This document shows, in pieces, positions 4,217 through 18,917 of a stretch of 20,183 bases of DNA. The DNA lies in the IMG/VR virus record IMGVR_UViG_3300009774_000031, positions 1 to 20,183 of that record. The stretch is one strand, 5' to 3'. A program made the position numbers and the translations under genes. The DNA is from a virus. The first letter of the stretch is position 1; every line of letters starts with the position of its first letter. The notes beneath the pieces are model-generated. The model was not told the DNA's origin. It saw nothing but the letters and a program-made list of their open reading frames with translations, and did not search any database.

Positions 4217-4242
4217 CCGGGCCGGACTTGGCGAAAGAACCT

Positions 4243-4343
4243 CGTCATTGCGAGCCGCTCTTGCGGCGTGGCAATCCAGGGGCCGTAGGTACGATCCTGA
4301 CCGCCCCTGGATTGCCACGGCGCAAGCGCGCCTCGCAATGACG
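4243..4343 (+). repeat. Palindromic interspersed repeat, copy 2
   Basis: Begins CGTCATTGCGAGCCGCTC and ends CGCCTCGCAATGACG, with the inner pair AATCCAGGGGC / GCCCCTGGATT. Same orientation as copy 1. It ends 24 bases before the ATG at 4368, leaving only an AAGGA ribosome-binding site between hairpin and start. Confidence 0.92.
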
Positions 4344-4367
4344 GAACCCCCTTCCACAAGGACGCAC

Positions 4368-5782: not shown

Positions 5783-5790
5783 CGCCGCTT

Positions 5791-5947
5791 CTCCCTCTCT
5801 CTCCGGGAGAGGGTCGGGGTGAGGGGGTCGTTCGGCACCGCCCCCACCCGCGTAAGACGCCACCCAAGACCGGTGCCGACCGGGGCCAACGATGCCCTGC
5901 GCGGCCAAGACCCCCTCACCCCAACCCTCTCCCGGAGGGAGAGGGAG
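5791..5947 (+). repeat. Long inverted repeat with 39-base arms upstream of the tail genes
   Basis: The left arm at 5791-5829 contains CTCCGGGAGAGGGTCGGGGT. The right arm at 5909-5947 contains ACCCCAACCCTCTCCCGGAG. The arms are complementary over 39 bases with about two mismatches and are separated by 79 bases. This is a sequence type (CCCTCACCCCAACCCTCTCCC) known as an interspersed repeat in many proteobacteria, and it is unrelated to the CATTGCGAGCC family. It fills nearly the whole 190-base gap between neck and tail genes. It could act as a transcriptional punctuation point between the head and tail operons, but that is inference. Confidence 0.88.
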
Positions 5948-5972
5948 CAGAACAGAACAGAAGGAGCCGCCC

Positions 5973-6116: not shown

Positions 6117-7691
6117 ATGCCGATCGTGCAAGCGGGCACCCTGAACACCACTGCCCTCGTCGTGCCGGACCTGTACGTGCAGATCGTGCCGCCGCAGGGG
6201 TTGGTGCTGAACGGGGTGCCGACCAACGTCATCGGCGTCGTCGGCTCCGCCACCTGGGGGCCGGTGAACCAGCCCGTCACGGTGGGCACCATGGCCGACT
6301 ACGCCCGCAGCTTCGGCCCCATCCAGGCCCGGCGCTTCGACATGGGCACACCCGTCGCCACCGCCGTGCAGCAGGGCGCGCAGGCGTTCCGCTGCGTGCG
6401 CGTGACGGACGGGACGGACGCGGCGGCCAACTACGCGCTGTTCTATGCCAATGGCGGCTACCCCGTGCTGCTGACGGCGCGATACACCGGCAGCACCGGC
6501 AACGGGGTGGCGCTGGCGTTGACGCCGGGTTCGGCGGCGGGGTCCTGGCGGCTGACGCTGGGGCTGCCGGGCCAGGTGGCGGAGACGTTCGACAACCTGG
6601 CCGCGCCGACGCCTGCCGCCCTGTGGCAGAACCTGGTGAACGCCGTGAACCTCGGCACCGGGGCGCTGCGCGGGCCGAGCCAGTTGTGCGTGGCCAGCCT
6701 GGGCAGTGCCACCACGACGGCACCCGCGGTGCTGCAAGGCCAAAGCCTGCTGAACGGCACGGACGGCGCGGCCGGCGTGTCGGCGGCGCTGCTTGTGGGG
6801 CAGGACGGCCTGCCGCGCCGGGGCATGTTCGCGCTGCGCGGCCAGGGGTGCAGCCTGCTGGTGCTGGCCGATGCCGACGACCCGGGCTGGTGGCCCACCC
6901 AGGCCGGGTTTGCGGTGCAGGAGGGGCTGTATGCCATCCTGACCGGCCCCGGCGGGGACGCCATCGGCACGGCGGTCCAGGCGAAGCAGGCGGCGGGGCT
7001 GGACAGCCCGGCGGCCAAGCTGATGTTCGGCGACTGGGTGTACTGGAACGACCCCGTGGCCGGCACCATACGCCTCGTCAGCCCGCAGGGCTTCGTGGCC
7101 GGGCGGCTGGCGAACCTCAGCCCCGAGCAAAGCAGCCTCAACAAGCCGCTGTATGGCGTGGTGGGCACCCAGCGCGCGGGCGTGCCGGGCAGCGCGGCCA
7201 GCACCGGCTACAGCACGGCGGAGCTGGCGGCGCTGCTGGGCGGGGGCCTGGACGTGATCGCCAACCCGCAGCCCGGCGGCAGCTTCTGGGGCGTGCGCGG
7301 CGGGCACAACAGCAGCAGCAATGCGGCCACGAACGGGGACAACTACACGCGGCTGACCAACTACATCGCCCGCACCTTGCAGGCGGGGATGGGCCAGTAT
7401 GTCGGCCAGGTCATCAACGCCGGGCTGTTCCGCCGCATACGCAGCACGCAACTGAGCTTCCTGCAGGCGCTGCTGGGCCAGGGCATCCTGGGGACGGTGG
7501 ACGGGTCCTTGCCGTTCAGCGTGGTGTGCGACGCGAGCAACAACCCGGCGGCGCGCGTGTCGCTCGGCTACGTGCAGTCCGACGCGCAGGTGCAGTACCA
7601 GGCGATCAACGAGCGCTTCATCGTGAACCTGGAGGGCGGGCAGACCGTGCAGGTCACGCGGCAGACCTTGCCCGCCGGGCAAGTGATCTAG
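6117..7691 (+). CDS. Contractile tail sheath protein
   Basis: A 524-residue protein of the usual sheath length, three bases after the small gene, with AGGAGATC before the ATG. The N-terminus includes YVQIVPPQGLVLNGVPTNVI and GVVGSATWGPVNQPVTVGTM, the standard sheath N-terminal pattern. Later come a DGTD(A) segment and TARYTGSTGNGVALAL near residue 120. A long C-terminal region contains NYTRLTNYIARTLQAGMGQY and PGGSFWGVRGGHNSSS. The C-terminus (RFIVNLEGGQTVQVTR) would provide the strand that links neighbouring sheath subunits. The sheath polymerises around the tube and contracts on infection, driving the tube through the envelope. The following gene is the tube, as in all such phages. Confidence 0.92.
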   Translation: MPIVQAGTLNTTALVVPDLYVQIVPPQGLVLNGVPTNVIGVVGSATWGPVNQPVTVGTMADYARSFGPIQARRFDMGTPVATAVQQGAQAFRCVRVTDGTDAAANYALFYANGGYPVLLTARYTGSTGNGVALALTPGSAAGSWRLTLGLPGQVAETFDNLAAPTPAALWQNLVNAVNLGTGALRGPSQLCVASLGSATTTAPAVLQGQSLLNGTDGAAGVSAALLVGQDGLPRRGMFALRGQGCSLLVLADADDPGWWPTQAGFAVQEGLYAILTGPGGDAIGTAVQAKQAAGLDSPAAKLMFGDWVYWNDPVAGTIRLVSPQGFVAGRLANLSPEQSSLNKPLYGVVGTQRAGVPGSAASTGYSTAELAALLGGGLDVIANPQPGGSFWGVRGGHNSSSNAATNGDNYTRLTNYIARTLQAGMGQYVGQVINAGLFRRIRSTQLSFLQALLGQGILGTVDGSLPFSVVCDASNNPAARVSLGYVQSDAQVQYQAINERFIVNLEGGQTVQVTRQTLPAGQVI

Positions 7692-7704: not shown

Positions 7705-8151
7705 ATGCCAGCAAACACATTCTCCACTGGGCGCGACTGCCAGCTTGTGGTGATCGGCCCGGCCAATGCCGGCCAGGCCGGCGCGCGCATCGACCTGACG
7801 CACGTGACCGGCTTCGAGAGCCGGCAGATGACCCACCCCGTCCGCATCGACCGGCTGGACGGCGTGCACCTGGCCGCCGAACTGCCGAAGGGCTGGGAGG
7901 GCCATTTCGACCTGGAGCGCGGCAGCCCGGCGGCGGACGACTTCATCGCCGGGATCGAGCAGGCCTGGCACACCCAGGGGCTGATCCAGGGTGCGACGCT
8001 GTATCAGTACATCAGCGAGAGCGACGGCAGCACGAGCACGTACCAGTTCGAGGCGGCGGTGTTCAAGCTGACCAACGCCGGCGCCTGGAAGGGCGACGCG
8101 CCGGTGCGCCAGCGCCTGGACTTCTTCGCCAGCCGGCGCAAGCGGATTTAG
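7705..8151 (+). CDS. Tail tube protein
   Basis: A 148-residue protein directly after the sheath gene, with a strong AGGGAGGG ribosome-binding site. Beta-rich text such as LVVIGPANAGQAGARIDLTH, TGFESRQMTHPVRIDRLDG and GWEGHFDLERGSPAADDFIA, plus a C-terminal strand pair (TYQFEAAVFKLTNAGAWKGD), fits the contractile tail tube (P2 gpFII or Mu gpM-type) fold. Length matches the family. Hexameric rings of this protein stack to form the DNA conduit inside the sheath. A truncated copy of the palindromic repeat follows six bases after the stop. Confidence 0.82.
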   Translation: MPANTFSTGRDCQLVVIGPANAGQAGARIDLTHVTGFESRQMTHPVRIDRLDGVHLAAELPKGWEGHFDLERGSPAADDFIAGIEQAWHTQGLIQGATLYQYISESDGSTSTYQFEAAVFKLTNAGAWKGDAPVRQRLDFFASRRKRI

Positions 8152-8156
8152 CTTCC

Positions 8157-8218
8157 CATCATTGCGAGCCGCTTGCGGCTCCTGGATTGCCGCGGCGCAA
8201 GCGCGCCTCGCAATGACG
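8157..8218 (+). repeat. Palindromic interspersed repeat, copy 3 (internally deleted)
   Basis: Only 62 bases long. The left arm (CATCATTGCGAGCCGCTTGC) joins the right arm (CTGGATTGCC...CTCGCAATGACG) without the centre, so this copy has lost about 37 bases. It starts six bases after the tube stop and ends 22 bases before the ATG at 8241. Confidence 0.88.
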
Positions 8219-8240
8219 GTCCCTTGTTGAAAGGACCCCC

Positions 8241-8552
8241 ATGGACACCCCATCCGACCGCATCATCGCCGAGGCTGGCCGCCCGTTGCAGGCCACCGAC
8301 GCCGCAGGCCGCGTGCTGGAGGTGCGCCGGCCCGGCGCGCTGGACCGGCTGCGGCTGTTCAAGGCGCTCGGCCCCGCGCTGTCGGCCAACGACCGCTATG
8401 TCGGCTATGCCATGCTCGCCTATTGCGTGCAGGCCATCGACGGGGTGCCGGTGCCGGTGGCCGCCACCGAGGCGCAGGTTGAGGCGCTGGTGGCGCGGCT
8501 CGGCGATGCCGGGCTGGCGGCGGTTGGCGAGGCGTTGTCCGACCCAAACTGA
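8241..8552 (+). CDS. Tail assembly chaperone, first frame (gpE-like)
   Basis: A 103-residue protein beginning at the ATG at 8241 with AAAGGA just upstream. It has a short beta-rich N-terminus (GRVLEVRRPGALDRLRLFKA), a middle helix (ANDRYVGYAMLAYCVQAIDG) and a C-terminal helix with EAQVEALVARLGDAGLAAVG. Size, position between tube and tape-measure genes, and the LDRLRLFKALG text match phage tail assembly chaperones of the P2 gpE / Mu gp41 type. These proteins keep the tape measure protein soluble while the tube polymerises on it. The gene ends in a canonical slippery heptamer immediately before the stop, so a fraction of ribosomes should shift into the next frame and make a longer protein of 173 residues. 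Confidence 0.78.
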   Translation: MDTPSDRIIAEAGRPLQATDAAGRVLEVRRPGALDRLRLFKALGPALSANDRYVGYAMLAYCVQAIDGVPVPVAATEAQVEALVARLGDAGLAAVGEALSDPN

Positions 8553-8585
8553 TGCGCGCCGCCGGGGCGCCCGACCCGGCGGCGC
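8543..8585 (+). promoter_or_regulatory. Programmed -1 ribosomal frameshift signal
   Basis: The heptamer C CCA AAC occupies 8543-8549 in the zero frame, followed immediately by the TGA stop at 8550-8552. It fits X XXY YYZ exactly: both tRNAs can re-pair as CCC and AAA after slipping back one base. Six bases further on lies a perfect 11-bp GC stem, GCGCCGCCGGG (8556-8566) pairing with CCCGGCGGCGC (8575-8585) around an 8-base loop. Slippery site, spacer and stem match the textbook arrangement. Slipping leads to CTG (8549) then ATG (8552), entering the second chaperone frame without any intervening stop. Confidence 0.85.
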
Positions 8586-8761
8586 TGCGTGGCCTGGTGG
8601 GGCAGGCGGACCTGGTGGACTGCCTGTTCCTGGTCCGCAACGGGGTACCGCTGGATGTGGCGTTCAGCCTTGAGGCGCAGGAGCGGATGGCATGGGTGAT
8701 CGTGATCGGCCAGATGGACGGGCTGGTGTGGGACTGGGCGGCGATGGCGTGGACGGGGTAG
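8552..8761 (+). CDS. Tail assembly chaperone, frameshift extension (gpE'-like)
   Basis: A 69-residue reading frame (70 when entered by frameshift at 8549) in the -1 frame relative to the first chaperone. It contains AALRGLVGQADLVDCLFLVR, GVPLDVAFSLEAQERMAWVI and a Trp-rich end (WDWAAMAWTG). Known chaperone extensions of P2 (E+E'), lambda (G+T) and Mu-like phages bear similar Leu/Trp-rich helical tails that contact the tape measure. The ATG at 8552 overlaps the previous stop (TGATG), so independent initiation is possible, but no ribosome-binding site is evident and the frameshift signal gives the better explanation. Expected outcome: abundant 103-residue protein and minor 173-residue fusion. 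Confidence 0.75.
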   Translation: MRAAGAPDPAALRGLVGQADLVDCLFLVRNGVPLDVAFSLEAQERMAWVIVIGQMDGLVWDWAAMAWTG

Positions 8762-8868
8762 CGGCGTATGGCGCCGACACCCTGGTGCTGCGGATCGAGC
8801 AGCTTCCCACGCCGCCCCGCCCCGCCCCATGCATGAGCCGATTGCGACCCAGAGAGGACCCGCGATGA
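8692..8868 (+). CDS. Small overlapping reading frame of uncertain reality
   Basis: A 58-residue frame from the ATG at 8692 that overlaps the chaperone extension and fills the otherwise empty 103-base gap before 8865. Its stop overlaps the next start (ATGATC). It reads GVAAYGADTLVLRIEQLP in its middle, which looks protein-like, then becomes Pro/Arg-rich. No ribosome-binding site stands out. It may be a true small protein coupled to the next gene, or chance in GC-rich DNA. Confidence 0.25.
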   Translation: MGDRDRPDGRAGVGLGGDGVDGVAAYGADTLVLRIEQLPTPPRPAPCMSRLRPREDPR

Positions 8869-9839
8869 TCGACGCCTACGAGATCGGCATCAACCTGGCC
8901 TTGCAGGACGGCGTGAGCGCCGGGCTGGAGGTCATCATCCGCGAGCTGTCCGCGCTGGACGCCGCCGTGGCCGCCAGCGCGTCGCGCTTGCAGGCGTTCA
9001 TGGGGCAGGCCCAGGCCGCCGCGGCTGTGGCGGCGCGCACGGCGGGGCCGGTTGCTGTGGCGGCACCGGCGGCGGAAGCCGCCGTGCCGCCTGCGCTGCC
9101 CGGGCTACGCGCCGCCGAAGCGCCTGCTGCGCCTGGTGTTGCCGCGGCGCCCGCGCCCGCCGCACCGGCCAGCATCCCGCCAGTGCGCGTGGCCGCTGCC
9201 GCACCTGCATTGCCGCCCGCCGTGCTGCCCATGCCGCGCGCCGATGCCGCCGCGCCGGCCCCTGCCACGCCGGGCCTGGTCCAGGCCGCACCCGCGCCGC
9301 CTGCCGGGCCGCCATCTGCTGCCCCGGCTCCAGCCCAGGTGGTTCGTATCGCCGCCGCCCCCCCGGCCAGCCCGGCAGCGTCCGTGCCACCCCGGGCGCC
9401 GCCCTCCACCGCCCGCCCGGCCGCGCCGCGCGTCGAGGTCGCGATGCTGCTGCCCCAGCCTGCGCCCAGCCCGGCAGCGCCAGTCCCCGCCGCCCCGATG
9501 CCGCCGGCGCCAACCGCCCCGCTGCCCACCGCGCCGCCCACAGCAATCCGCGCCGCCATGCCGCCCCTGCTGCCCCGCCTTCCGCCCGCTGCGCCCATGG
9601 TTCCCGTCGCGCCCACGCCCGCCATGCCCGCCGCCGCCCCCTTCGCCGCCCGCCCCGCCGCCCCGCCGCCCCCGACACAGGACGGCGGGCAGCGCGGTGG
9701 CGACGTGGTGCTGGACGGCCGCCTCGTGGGCCATTGGCTCGCCGACCGCATGGGCCGCGACGCCGCCCGGCCAGGTGCCGGCACCACCGGCTTCGACCCC
9801 CGCCAGTCCCCGGCCTGGACGCCCGCCGGGTCACAATAG
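8865..9839 (+). CDS. Pro/Ala-rich protein in the tape-measure position
   Basis: Starts at the ATG at 8865, after a strong AGAGAGGA (8851-8858); an ATG at 8829 has no such signal. The 324-residue protein has an ordered N-terminal part (YEIGINLALQDGVSAGLEVI, then a helix DAAVAASASRLQAFMGQAQA). Residues 57-280 are almost wholly Ala, Pro, Val and Met in low-complexity repeats. The compact C-terminus contains VVLDGRLVGHWLADRMGRDA and DPRQSPAW. Contractile phages encode the tape measure protein right after the chaperones, and no other candidate exists here. The DGRxVGxWLAxxM ending is familiar from proteins in this position of alphaproteobacterial prophages. It lacks the long coiled coils and membrane helices of typical tape measures and is very short for that role. 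The function is inferred from position. Confidence 0.6.
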   Translation: MIDAYEIGINLALQDGVSAGLEVIIRELSALDAAVAASASRLQAFMGQAQAAAAVAARTAGPVAVAAPAAEAAVPPALPGLRAAEAPAAPGVAAAPAPAAPASIPPVRVAAAAPALPPAVLPMPRADAAAPAPATPGLVQAAPAPPAGPPSAAPAPAQVVRIAAAPPASPAASVPPRAPPSTARPAAPRVEVAMLLPQPAPSPAAPVPAAPMPPAPTAPLPTAPPTAIRAAMPPLLPRLPPAAPMVPVAPTPAMPAAAPFAARPAAPPPPTQDGGQRGGDVVLDGRLVGHWLADRMGRDAARPGAGTTGFDPRQSPAWTPAGSQ

Positions 9840-9843
9840 AAAC

Positions 9844-9942
9844 CGTCATTGCGAGCCGCTTGCGGCGCGGCAATCCAGGGGCGGCCAGGACCGCGCTTCC
9901 GGCCCCTGGATTGCCACGGCGCAAGCGCGCCTCGCAATGACG
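9844..9942 (+). repeat. Palindromic interspersed repeat, copy 4
   Basis: Begins CGTCATTGCGAGCCGCTTGC and ends CGCCTCGCAATGACG, with the inner pair AATCCAGGGGC / GCCCCTGGATT. It begins four bases after the stop of the Pro/Ala-rich gene and is followed by 43 bases with an AAGGAG site before the next ATG. Confidence 0.92.
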
Positions 9943-9985
9943 GGTGATGGACCGCCGCCGCGTCCACCCACCCAAGGAGCACCCC

Positions 9986-12173: not shown

Positions 12174-12299
12174 GGGTAGCCTGCCAACCTGCCATTCCAT
12201 AGCAACTACTGTGACAGGAACAATTTCCGCTAATAGGCTCTAGTAGGAGACCGTCGTCCGTGTCATGCGGATGGTTCATGTCTGTTGAGTGCTTGCCTG
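12174..12299 (+). promoter_or_regulatory. AT-richer leader of the cargo island, possible promoter (weak)
   Basis: GC content falls abruptly after the gpV stop. GTGACA at 12211-12216 differs from a -35 box at one position. It is followed 17 bases later by TAGGCT (12234-12239), and alternatively TAATAG begins at 12231 with 14-base spacing. Neither is a strong -10 box. The symmetrical GGAACAATTTCC (12217-12228) between them could be an operator half-site pair. A seven-codon frame from the ATG at 12265 ends at 12288, just before the next gene. An independent promoter for the island is plausible but unproven. Confidence 0.22.
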
Positions 12300-13445
12300 A
12301 TGAAGCTCCTCACCGAGCGCCGCCGCCGCTGGTTCGCACGACGCAGACACTATGAGGCGAAACGCAAATCGCGAAAGCTTCACCCGAAGCTGATACAAGT
12401 CCTTGTGGCTGGAAGTTCCTTTGTCGCACCGGCGGGACGTGCAGAGCCTATGCCCGAAGTCCTATGTTTTGACGAGGACTGTCAAGGCACCGTCGAGGCT
12501 CTCGCGCAGGTTCGCAATCGGCTGTTCACGCCGATAAGAGGCGGCACGCAGCTCAGGCTACGTCGAATAGGAAACCGTCGGCAGATTAGCACGGGTAGTT
12601 ACAAAGCACTTGAATGCATCAAGCGGATCACCCCAGCAGCAGCTCTAGTGTTGGCAGCGGAGTACGACCGGGTCGGAGAGATCGCCAAGAAGCCTCAGGC
12701 CCTGGTGAACATACCTGCATGGGATACGTCGGTTCGGACCATGCTGCAGGGAATTGGCTTCTTGGCACTATTTGGCATTGTAGATGGCGATGCTACATCG
12801 ACAGATGTTGGTGGCACGGCTGTGCTGCGCATGAGGACCGGCAGAACTCACGATCCAGTTGCGATCAATGACCTTGTGGAGAGCTTGAAGCTTCTCTTTC
12901 CTGCCTCGGATCACCCTGATCAAGCTAAGACAATGGGCCTATTTGGGGCGCTTACCGAGGCAGTCGGAAACGTTGTCCACCATGCCTATCCTGCAAACGG
13001 AACATACATCGCACCGCACGTTGGGCGCTGGTGGATGACAGGTGCTGTGGATCGCGATGCCGGTTGGACTGCTGCTGCAGTGTATGACCAAGGGACGACG
13101 ATCCCGGTGAGCTTGCCAGACTGGGCGAACTATCCGGGAGTGAAACGCCGCGTTATAGAGATGGCACAGCGGCTACAACTGACCCATGAGGCGGGGTCTC
13201 CACGATGGGATGGACATGCGATTGAGGCTGCGGTGGAGGAGTCTTCCACGTCAACTGGCTTATCCGGTCGTGGACATGGGTTGGCGCAGATGCGAGAGTT
13301 CGTTGACGCCTGCCAGGATGGGCGCCTACGAATCCTAAGCAGATACGGGGAGGTTGTCTTCCGACCCAATCAGAGACCATATGTCAACCATCATCGTGCT
13401 CCTATCTCCGGAACCCTGGTTGAGTGGAGCGTTCTTCTTCGATGA
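12300..13445 (+). CDS. GHKL/HATPase-type ATP-binding protein (cargo island gene 1)
   Basis: Starts at the ATG at 12300 (381 residues); a TTG at 12285 adds five residues. The first 35 residues are very basic (ERRRRWFARRRHYEAKRKSR). Counting from the TTG, the N-terminal 200 residues carry a possible STAS-like or receiver-type region I cannot name, including FDEDCQGTVEALAQVRNRL. The C-terminal half has the GHKL ATP-binding boxes: N box LTEAVGNVVHHAY (E225, N229), G1 box YDQGTTIP (D268, G270), and G2 box GRGHGLAQM (328-336), ending GTLVEWSVLL. Anti-sigma kinases of the SpoIIAB/RsbW type use this domain to bind ATP and phosphorylate STAS partners. The next gene is STAS-like, which fits such a pair. 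Codon use (AGA, ATA, TAT) differs sharply from the phage genes, indicating foreign origin. Confidence 0.82.
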   Translation: MKLLTERRRRWFARRRHYEAKRKSRKLHPKLIQVLVAGSSFVAPAGRAEPMPEVLCFDEDCQGTVEALAQVRNRLFTPIRGGTQLRLRRIGNRRQISTGSYKALECIKRITPAAALVLAAEYDRVGEIAKKPQALVNIPAWDTSVRTMLQGIGFLALFGIVDGDATSTDVGGTAVLRMRTGRTHDPVAINDLVESLKLLFPASDHPDQAKTMGLFGALTEAVGNVVHHAYPANGTYIAPHVGRWWMTGAVDRDAGWTAAAVYDQGTTIPVSLPDWANYPGVKRRVIEMAQRLQLTHEAGSPRWDGHAIEAAVEESSTSTGLSGRGHGLAQMREFVDACQDGRLRILSRYGEVVFRPNQRPYVNHHRAPISGTLVEWSVLLR

Positions 13446-13460
13446 GCAGGACGGTGCGAG

Positions 13461-13805
13461 ATGACGACGTTGCGGGTTAAAGACTATGCGGCCGCGCCTG
13501 GTGGGCGCTACCGCAAGGACGGGCCGTATAGCGGTGAGGAGTTCCGGGACGACATCCTCGTCCCCCGGCTCTTGGATGCTGTGACCCGGAACGAGCAGGT
13601 CGTGGTCGAGCTGGACGGCGTGTCTGGCTACGGCTCGTCGTTCCTGGAGGAGGTCTTCGGAGGCCTCGTTCGCCGCGGCGTGATCGCACAGCAGGACGTT
13701 GCACGGTTGCTGCAGGTGCTTGCTAAGGAACACCTGTTCAAGCCGCAGCAGATGCTTGTCGAACGCTACATGCGGCGCGCGCAGGAGATGATGCCACAAG
13801 GCTAG
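13461..13805 (+). CDS. STAS-like DUF4325 protein (cargo island gene 2)
   Basis: A 114-residue protein 15 bases after the ATPase stop, with GGACGG upstream. The signature GYGSSFLEEVFGGLVRRG (residues 56-73) is the core of DUF4325, a STAS-like domain in which a Ser-Ser-Phe-Leu-Asp/Glu-Glu segment marks the helix that takes phosphate in true STAS antagonists. The preceding strand VVVELDGV (residues 47-54) and N-terminal FRDDILVPRL agree. DUF4325 proteins are commonly encoded next to HATPase proteins, and together they resemble a partner-switching pair. Its role here is probably to bind the ATPase and relay a signal. Composition is between that of the ATPase gene and the phage genes. Confidence 0.82.
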   Translation: MTTLRVKDYAAAPGGRYRKDGPYSGEEFRDDILVPRLLDAVTRNEQVVVELDGVSGYGSSFLEEVFGGLVRRGVIAQQDVARLLQVLAKEHLFKPQQMLVERYMRRAQEMMPQG

Positions 13806-14645: not shown

Positions 14646-14758
14646 TCGACGAGTGCCTGTCTAAGGCGCTTGTCCAAGTCGCGGTTGGCCGCGGCTACCC
14701 CGCCGACTTCGTGCCGCACATCGGCAAGGCCGGCCTGTCCGACCGTGACCATCCCTTG
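14642..14758 (+). pseudogene. Truncated DUF5615-type PIN-like toxin gene
   Basis: The TTG at 14642 overlaps the antitoxin stop (TTGA), the usual coupling of such pairs. The frame begins LIDECLSKALVQVAVGRGYP and continues ADFVPHIGKAGLSDRD, the N-terminal signature of DUF5615 PIN-like toxins (LLIDECLSPALV...G...H...GKAGLxDWD), including the acidic Asp-Glu pair expected at the nuclease site. After about 39 residues it runs into the palindromic repeat at 14757, and the remaining two thirds are gone. With its antitoxin also broken, this toxin-antitoxin module is dead. Confidence 0.72.
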
Positions 14759-14856
14759 TCGTTGCGAGGCGCGCTTGCGCCGCGGCATGGGGGGGCGGCC
14801 AGGACTGCGATGACGGCCCCTGGACTGCCGCGCCGCCAGAGCGGCTCGCAATGACG
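14757..14856 (-). repeat. Palindromic interspersed repeat, copy 5 (opposite orientation)
   Basis: Begins GTTGCGAGGCGCGCTTGCGC and ends GAGCGGCTCGCAATGACG, which is the reverse complement of the arm order in the other copies. It truncates the DUF5615 remnant, so it arrived after, or together with, the decay of that gene. It is more diverged than the other full-length copies. The 78 bases from here to the ATG at 14935 hold nothing recognised except the GGAG site of the next gene. Confidence 0.88.
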
Positions 14857-14934
14857 ATGCCCTAACACAAGGGTCATAGCGCAAGGCCGCATGACACTGC
14901 GCCCCTGACGCCTCCAGCCCCCGGAGCACCCGCA

Positions 14935-18783: not shown

Positions 18784-18797
18784 CCGCCAACGGACTG

Positions 18798-18896
18798 CGT
18801 CATTGCGAGCCACTTGCGGCGTGGCAATCCAGGGGCCGCCAGCGCAAGCCCTTGCCGCCCCTGGATTGCCGCGTCGCTGCGCTCCTCGCAATGACA
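18798..18896 (+). repeat. Palindromic interspersed repeat, copy 6
   Basis: Begins CGTCATTGCGAGCCACTTGC with inner pair AATCCAGGGGC / GCCCCTGGATT (one mismatch). The right arm differs from the other copies (CGTCGCTGCGCTCCTCGCAA), so this copy belongs to a slightly different subtype. It lies 15 bases after the fibre stop and ends 21 bases before the next ATG. Confidence 0.88.
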
Positions 18897-18917
18897 CCCC
18901 TAGCAGGAGCATCCTCC

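What the first reader, a model, noticed from the sequence alone, without database searches (positions are those of the whole stretch)
8543..8585. Textbook -1 frameshift signal in the tail chaperone gene
Seen: C CCA AAC in the correct frame directly before TGA, a 6-base spacer, a perfect 11-bp all-G/C stem with an 8-base loop, and an open -1 frame that encodes a Leu/Trp-rich extension. Known: tail assembly chaperones of many phages are made by frameshifting, but signals vary. CCCAAAC is not the heptamer used by lambda (GGGAAAG) or P2. The stop codon immediately after the heptamer may add a pause.
Basis: partly seen in the sequence, partly recalled or inferred. Interest (0 to 1): 0.68.

Follow-up and report, generated by a model that had tools for sequence, protein, structure and literature searches.

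The report
Frameshift signal in phage tail-chaperone gene
A phage tail-assembly gene carries a built-in slip point that lets some ribosomes back up one base and make a longer protein; over 100 related phages keep the slip point, though its letters and the RNA fold after it change, so it is almost certainly real, but this trick is already well known in tailed phages.

Summary
Confirmed. At 8543-8549, C_CCA_AAC lies in phase, directly before TGA, at the end of a 103-codon gene. Six bases on is a perfect 11-bp G/C hairpin (8556-8585); a 70-codon -1 frame runs to 8760. The gene sits between the tube-like and tape-measure-like genes of a contractile-tail phage (Acetobacteraceae kin). Its predicted fold is nearest HK97 tail assembly chaperone (2OB9).

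All 106 junction clusters keep an in-phase X_XXY_YYZ heptamer and the -1 extension, while the heptamer itself changes (83 GGGAAAC, 19 AAAAAAC, 3 CCCAAAC, 1 GGGAAAT; two betaproteobacterial plasmid loci have AAAAAAC and AAAAAAA). A stop follows directly in 91/106. The downstream stem is kept with compensatory changes, but comes in two forms: a compact hairpin (window clade) and a longer-span stem (the rest). The ATG overlapping the stop, which would permit re-initiation, occurs in the window's own cluster only.

So this is programmed -1 frameshifting making a short and a long tail chaperone, as in lambda gpG/gpGT. Known kind; new protein family; CCCAAAC found in no frameshifting paper searched. 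Expression is not shown; the case is comparative. Interest modest.

The parts
8241..8552 (+). [quoted passage not shown]
   Evidence: ORF; PHROG 20383 'unknown function' E 1.4e-21; AlphaFold2 pLDDT 90.8; best PDB match HK97 tail assembly chaperone 2OB9, Z 5.2, then YqbN 3KLU, Z 5.1; tube-like gene upstream, tape-measure-like gene downstream
8529..8532 (+). GAGG, a Shine-Dalgarno-like motif ending 10 nt before the heptamer; possible upstream stimulator
   Evidence: Sequence; across 106 clusters the anti-SD duplex 3-9 nt upstream is stronger than under synonymous resampling, z -5.6, not corrected for kinship. Inference only
8543..8549 (+). Slippery heptamer C_CCA_AAC in zero-frame phase
   Evidence: Sequence; in-phase X_XXY_YYZ in 106/106 clusters; CCA is 11% of Pro codons in these genes
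8550..8552 (+). Zero-frame stop TGA directly after the heptamer; ATG 8552-8554 overlaps it
   Evidence: Stop adjacent in 91/106 clusters, 83/85 L-S junctions against about 22% expected; TGATG only in the window's own cluster
8556..8585 (+). Stimulatory hairpin: 11-bp G/C stem 8556-8566/8575-8585, 8-nt loop
   Evidence: Fold; z -3.5 against synonymous resampling; 100% paired in the window clade with C-G, G-U and G-C at one pair; 96.4% paired in the compact-hairpin clade
8549..8762 (+). -1 frame extension (70 aa, first codon CTG 8549-8551, stop TAG 8760-8762), fused to the short product after the shift
   Evidence: Homologous -1 frame in 188/190 loci; dN/dS 0.15-0.60 in the -1 frame against >1 in the other two; AlphaFold2 pLDDT 90.6
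6117..7691 (+). Tail sheath (context)
   Evidence: PHROG 23 tail sheath E 6.7e-49
7705..8151 (+). Probable tail tube (context)
   Evidence: PHROG 12993, unknown function, E 1.7e-34; tube named from its place after the sheath gene
8868..9839 (+). Probable short tape measure protein (context)
   Evidence: ORF; MIDAYEIGI... start shared by the gene downstream of the extension in L041, L053, L092, L015 (312-420 aa); a gene annotated tape measure lies downstream in the Paraburkholderia homologue. Inferred from place

Best explanation
A programmed -1 ribosomal frameshift in a tail assembly chaperone gene of a contractile-tail (myovirus-like) phage. Most ribosomes read CCA AAC and stop at TGA, giving a 103-aa chaperone. 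On a minority the two tRNAs slip back from C_CCA_AAC to CCC AAA, helped by the hairpin six bases downstream and perhaps by an SD-like motif upstream; they read on in the -1 frame and make a 173-aa fusion (...SDPN-LMRAAG...WTG). By analogy with lambda gpG/gpGT, many short copies would coat the tape measure protein and a few long copies would recruit tube subunits. Shown by sequence: signal, conservation, selection on the -1 frame, gene order, predicted fold. Inferred: that the slip happens, at what rate, and what each product does.
For: In-phase heptamer in 106/106 junction clusters while its letters change between four forms; base before XX equals X in 106/106, with the codons used (GGA 10% of Gly, AAA 17.5% of Lys, CCA 11% of Pro) being minor ones. 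CCCAAAC is one clade nested in GGGAAAC phages; at least 6 changes of heptamer type on the tree. Extension in the -1 frame in 188/190 loci, dN/dS 0.22 median against 1.2 and 2.0 in the other frames. Stem conserved with compensatory pairs in both forms. Distant betaproteobacterial homologues keep A_AAA_AAC TAG and A_AAA_AAA TAA with a stem. 77/106 clusters have no start codon in the open -1 frame upstream of the heptamer's end. Fold nearest HK97 gp13 chaperone.
Against: No expression data. C_CCA_AAC, G_GGA_AAC and A_AAA_AAC end in AAC, the class that slips poorly in E. coli (PMC4066793), so the rate may be low or may need the host's own tRNAs. The fold match is modest (Z 5.2, Foldseek E 0.29). 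The extension has no recognised fold or family. One outlier, L161, reads GGGAAC, one A short; sequencing error or decay cannot be told apart.
Confidence: 0.95

Rival explanations
1. Termination-reinitiation: ribosomes stop at TGA and restart at the overlapping ATG (8552), making a separate 69-aa protein; heptamer and stem are incidental.
For: TGATG overlap in the window and its near-identical copies.
Against: TGATG is found in 1 of 106 clusters; the close kin L003-L009 have TAGCC, TGATC or TAGGC instead and keep heptamer, stem and extension. The only SD-like motif lies 19 nt before the ATG. An in-phase heptamer in every cluster is unexplained.
Confidence: 0.03
2. Transcriptional slippage: the polymerase inserts or drops a base at the run, and the mixed mRNAs encode both products.
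For: Some relatives have A6 or A7 runs (AAAAAAC, AAAAAAA).
Against: The window and most relatives have only C3A3 or G3A3, too short for polymerase slippage by general knowledge; the downstream RNA stem and the phase of the heptamer would not be needed.
Confidence: 0.01
3. Two separate genes or a decayed gene: the -1 frame is a leftover, or is translated from an internal GTG/TTG.
For: Annotators call the halves separate ORFs in phiKX1/2; in-frame GTG/TTG codons occur inside the extension.
Against: The -1 frame is under purifying selection from its first codon after the heptamer; candidate start codons differ in place among clusters, with conserved residues before them.
Confidence: 0.01

Closest known systems
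Lambda gpG/gpGT tail assembly chaperone -1 frameshift (G_GGA_AAG), and the wider phage set of Xu, Hendrix and Duda 2004
   Same: Place between tube and tape measure genes; short chaperone plus -1 extended form; X_XXY_YYZ heptamer near the end of the first gene (PMC5009743; lambda heptamer from own knowledge)
   Different: No sequence match to a known chaperone family; stop directly after the heptamer; AAC rather than AAG second codon; strong 3' stem
Burkholderia phage KL1 gp18/gp19 (predicted)
   Same: GGGAAAC immediately upstream of TGA, predicted downstream stem-loop, pre-tape-measure gene (PMC3483164), almost the same layout
   Different: Siphovirus; product sizes 142/264 aa; window clade has CCCAAAC
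Caulobacter phages phiCbK (AAAAAAC) and Colossus (GGGAAAC) pre-tape-measure chaperones
   Same: Same heptamers as the window's relatives, alphaproteobacterial hosts (PMC3556154)
   Different: Long-tailed siphoviruses; chaperone sequences were not compared here
[quoted passage not shown]
   Same: Stop codon directly 3' of the slippery site (stated in PMC4373837)
   Different: Eukaryotic RNA viruses; gag-pol or polymerase expression
E. coli dnaX -1 site
   Same: Heptamer flanked by an upstream SD-like motif and a downstream hairpin (from own knowledge)
   Different: A_AAA_AAG; makes a shorter, not a longer, product

Membership tests
Programmed -1 ribosomal frameshift site | X_XXY_YYZ heptamer in zero-frame phase | tested here: met
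   Window and 106/106 clusters
Programmed -1 ribosomal frameshift site | Conserved, selected -1 frame open past the zero-frame stop | tested here: met
   188/190 loci; dN/dS
Programmed -1 ribosomal frameshift site | Downstream stimulatory structure at about 5-9 nt (common, not obligatory) | tested here: met
   6-nt spacer in the window; covariation
Programmed -1 ribosomal frameshift site | Measured frameshift product | not testable with these tools
   Needs a reporter assay or mass spectrometry
Phage tail assembly chaperone (gpG/gpGT type) | Gene just upstream of the tape measure and downstream of the tube | tested here: met
   Sheath by PHROG; tube and tape measure named by place; a gene annotated tape measure lies downstream in the Paraburkholderia homologue
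Phage tail assembly chaperone (gpG/gpGT type) | Two products sharing an N-terminus by frameshift | tested here: inconclusive
   Sequence and conservation fit; the products themselves were not seen
Phage tail assembly chaperone (gpG/gpGT type) | Sequence match to a known chaperone family | tested here: inconclusive
   No convincing Pfam match among 75 members; only PHROG 20383 of unknown function
Phage tail assembly chaperone (gpG/gpGT type) | Chaperone fold (HK97 gp13-like) | tested here: inconclusive
   2OB9 ranks first, Z 5.2 over 97 residues, YqbN 3KLU second, Z 5.1, next row 3.3; Foldseek E 0.29. Suggestive but below a firm threshold
Phage tail assembly chaperone (gpG/gpGT type) | Binds tape measure protein, absent from the virion | not testable with these tools
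   Needs biochemistry

The most novel reading that the evidence does not exclude
The stop codon right after the heptamer is an active, selected part of the signal in this phage lineage: release factor competes with slippage and sets the ratio of short to long chaperone, so the host's termination capacity tunes tail assembly; meanwhile the RNA stimulator was replaced once (long-span stem to compact hairpin) without disturbing the rest.
Probability: 0.25. Interest if true: 0.5.

Novelty: new member of a known kind. Interest (0 to 1): 0.3.

Why it matters
It adds a clean, deeply sampled case of tail-chaperone frameshifting in phages of Acetobacteraceae, with a protein family absent from Pfam and of unknown function in PHROGs, whose second half the phiKX1/2 annotation presents as a separate ORF. 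Because slippery letters, stop and stem vary independently on one tree, the family can serve as a natural experiment on what a bacterial -1 signal must keep. Nearly all members use AAC as second codon, a class that is weak in E. coli, which asks how low a rate suffices or how these hosts differ.

Tried and rejected
Bare-word statistics for CCCAAAC: no excess in the window, so chance had to be judged by phase, place and kin. Genome relatives of the window's own assembly could not be drawn, as it is a virus record. Pfam, PHROG and NCBIfam scans of the extension gave nothing convincing; scattered weak Pfam hits for the short product are chance. Foldseek on the extension against viral models: best E 0.68. 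A tblastn of the extension in the phage collection found nothing at E 0.01, although phiKX1/2 do carry a remote homologue. Paper search for CCCAAAC with frameshift: 13 papers, none about a frameshift site; the library lacks most subscription papers, so CCCAAAC may have been reported elsewhere. Re-initiation, transcriptional slippage and decay considered and rejected as above.

Full report
OBSERVATION. Reading 7800-9400 and the ORF list confirms each stated element. The zero frame ends GAC CCA AAC TGA, so C_CCA_AAC (8543-8549) is in phase with the stop directly after it. The hairpin is 8556-8566/8575-8585, 11 bp, 8-nt loop, and the -1 frame runs to TAG 8760. The RNA folds at -33.1 kcal/mol (51 nt), z -1.8 against dinucleotide shuffles but z -3.5 against resampling synonymous codons of the extension. 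A heptamer directly before a stop has p about 0.007, and such a stem p about 0.02 given protein and codon usage.

RELATIVES. tblastn-confirmed scans gave 11 close loci, then 80 and 80 more in viral contigs and 21 in genomes, most of them Acetobacteraceae or unplaced Proteobacteria, plus Komagataeibacter phages phiKX1/2. In 188 of 190 loci the extension lies in the -1 frame; the other two are L073, where no extension was matched, and L161, where the heptamer is one base short. After collapsing near-copies, 106 of 106 junction clusters have an in-phase X_XXY_YYZ: GGGAAAC 83, AAAAAAC 19, CCCAAAC 3, GGGAAAT 1. The base before XX equals X in all 106, and the codons involved are minor ones in these genes: GGA 10% of Gly, AAA 17.5% of Lys, CCA 11% of Pro. 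Protein conservation alone would not give this. On a tree of the fused proteins CCCAAAC is one clade (100/99) inside GGGAAAC phages, and at least six changes of heptamer type are needed: the letters change, the pattern does not.

Two remote homologues on betaproteobacterial plasmids (Aquitalea, Paraburkholderia) keep A_AAA_AAC TAG and A_AAA_AAA TAA at the same place, each with a downstream stem.

STEM. There are two forms. The window's clade (11 rows on the tree, 100/100) mostly has a compact hairpin inside an inserted stretch of the extension; L010, in that clade, is an exception, with its stop 15 nt on and no such hairpin just after the heptamer. In the CCCAAAC clade the stem is 100% paired, and its one varying pair is C-G, G-U or G-C; over the wider clade 96.4% of cells pair, with G-C, C-G and A-U at that pair. 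The other 95 clusters lack the insertion and form a longer-span stem, GGCACCCCG with CGGGGTGCC, often with an inner helix: outer helix 98.8% paired, changes on both sides at three pairs. With the betaproteobacterial rows one pair shows C-G, U-A, A-U and G-C. Sliding controls for the two helices together fall to 35-50%. Kinship is not corrected, so the covariation is strong support, not proof.

STOP. It follows the heptamer directly in 91/106 clusters, 3 nt on in six, 15 in one, 18 in eight. In L-S junctions 83/85 have it, whereas codon usage given those residues predicts about 22%. So it seems selected, though not essential. Whether it pauses or only competes is open; a stop there lowers -1 shifting in HIV reporters (PMC4373837).

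UPSTREAM. Anti-SD pairing peaks in windows ending 3-9 nt before the heptamer and exceeds synonymous resampling by z -5.6. The window has GAGG at 8529-8532. I treat this as a lead only.

IDENTITY. The window holds neck, major head, sheath, baseplate and fibre genes: a contractile-tail phage. The short product has no Pfam match, only PHROG 20383 of unknown function; its model (pLDDT 90.8) is closest to HK97 tail assembly chaperone 2OB9 (Z 5.2) and YqbN 3KLU (Z 5.1) with the next at 3.3. This is modest alone, persuasive with gene order and the frameshift. The extension folds confidently (pLDDT 90.6) but matches nothing.

MECHANISM AND RIVALS. Programmed -1 frameshifting explains phase, heptamer turnover, stem and selection on the -1 frame. 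Re-initiation fails because TGATG is confined to the window's cluster and 77/106 clusters have no upstream start codon in that frame. Transcriptional slippage does not fit C3A3 or G3A3. All of this is comparative; no product has been measured.

WHAT IS KNOWN. The principle is lambda's gpG/gpGT (PMC5009743). GGGAAAC directly before TGA is predicted in KL1 (PMC3483164); AAAAAAC and GGGAAAC in phiCbK-like phages (PMC3556154). The phiKX1/2 paper does not mention a frameshift (PMC8566455). In E. [quoted passage not shown] I file it as a new member of a known kind.

Noticed in passing
2293-2406, 4240-4353, 8154-8218, 9842-9946, 14749-14857, 18796-18897: Six copies of a roughly 65-110 nt palindromic element (core TGGATTGCC.CGGCGCAAGCGCGCCTCGCAATGACG) in gaps between or at the ends of phage genes, one just before the chaperone gene.
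   Followed up: partly
5788-5950: A 42-nt inverted repeat, 93% complementary, arms 79 nt apart, in the gap before the sheath gene.
   Followed up: no
12285-13445 and 13461-13805: Two ORFs among baseplate genes that by eye look like a histidine-kinase-type ATPase and a STAS/DUF4325-like partner; the first matches PHROG 3364 of unknown function. Possible cargo pair.
   Followed up: no
L161 around the junction: Only locus with a broken heptamer (GGGAAC), which puts the extension in the +1 frame; real deletion or sequencing error.
   Followed up: partly
L190 (Aquitalea plasmid), L191 (Paraburkholderia plasmid): Records filed as non-mobilizable plasmids carry tail genes in the same order with the same frameshift layout; likely phage-plasmids.
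   Followed up: partly
L016: A contig binned as Terriglobia (Acidobacteriota) carries a homologue that groups with proteobacterial ones; misbinning or a wider host range.
   Followed up: no
L012, L013 3351-3530: phiKX1/2 annotation starts the extension at an internal ATG as a separate gene; the A_AAA_AAC TGA site upstream is not annotated.
   Followed up: yes
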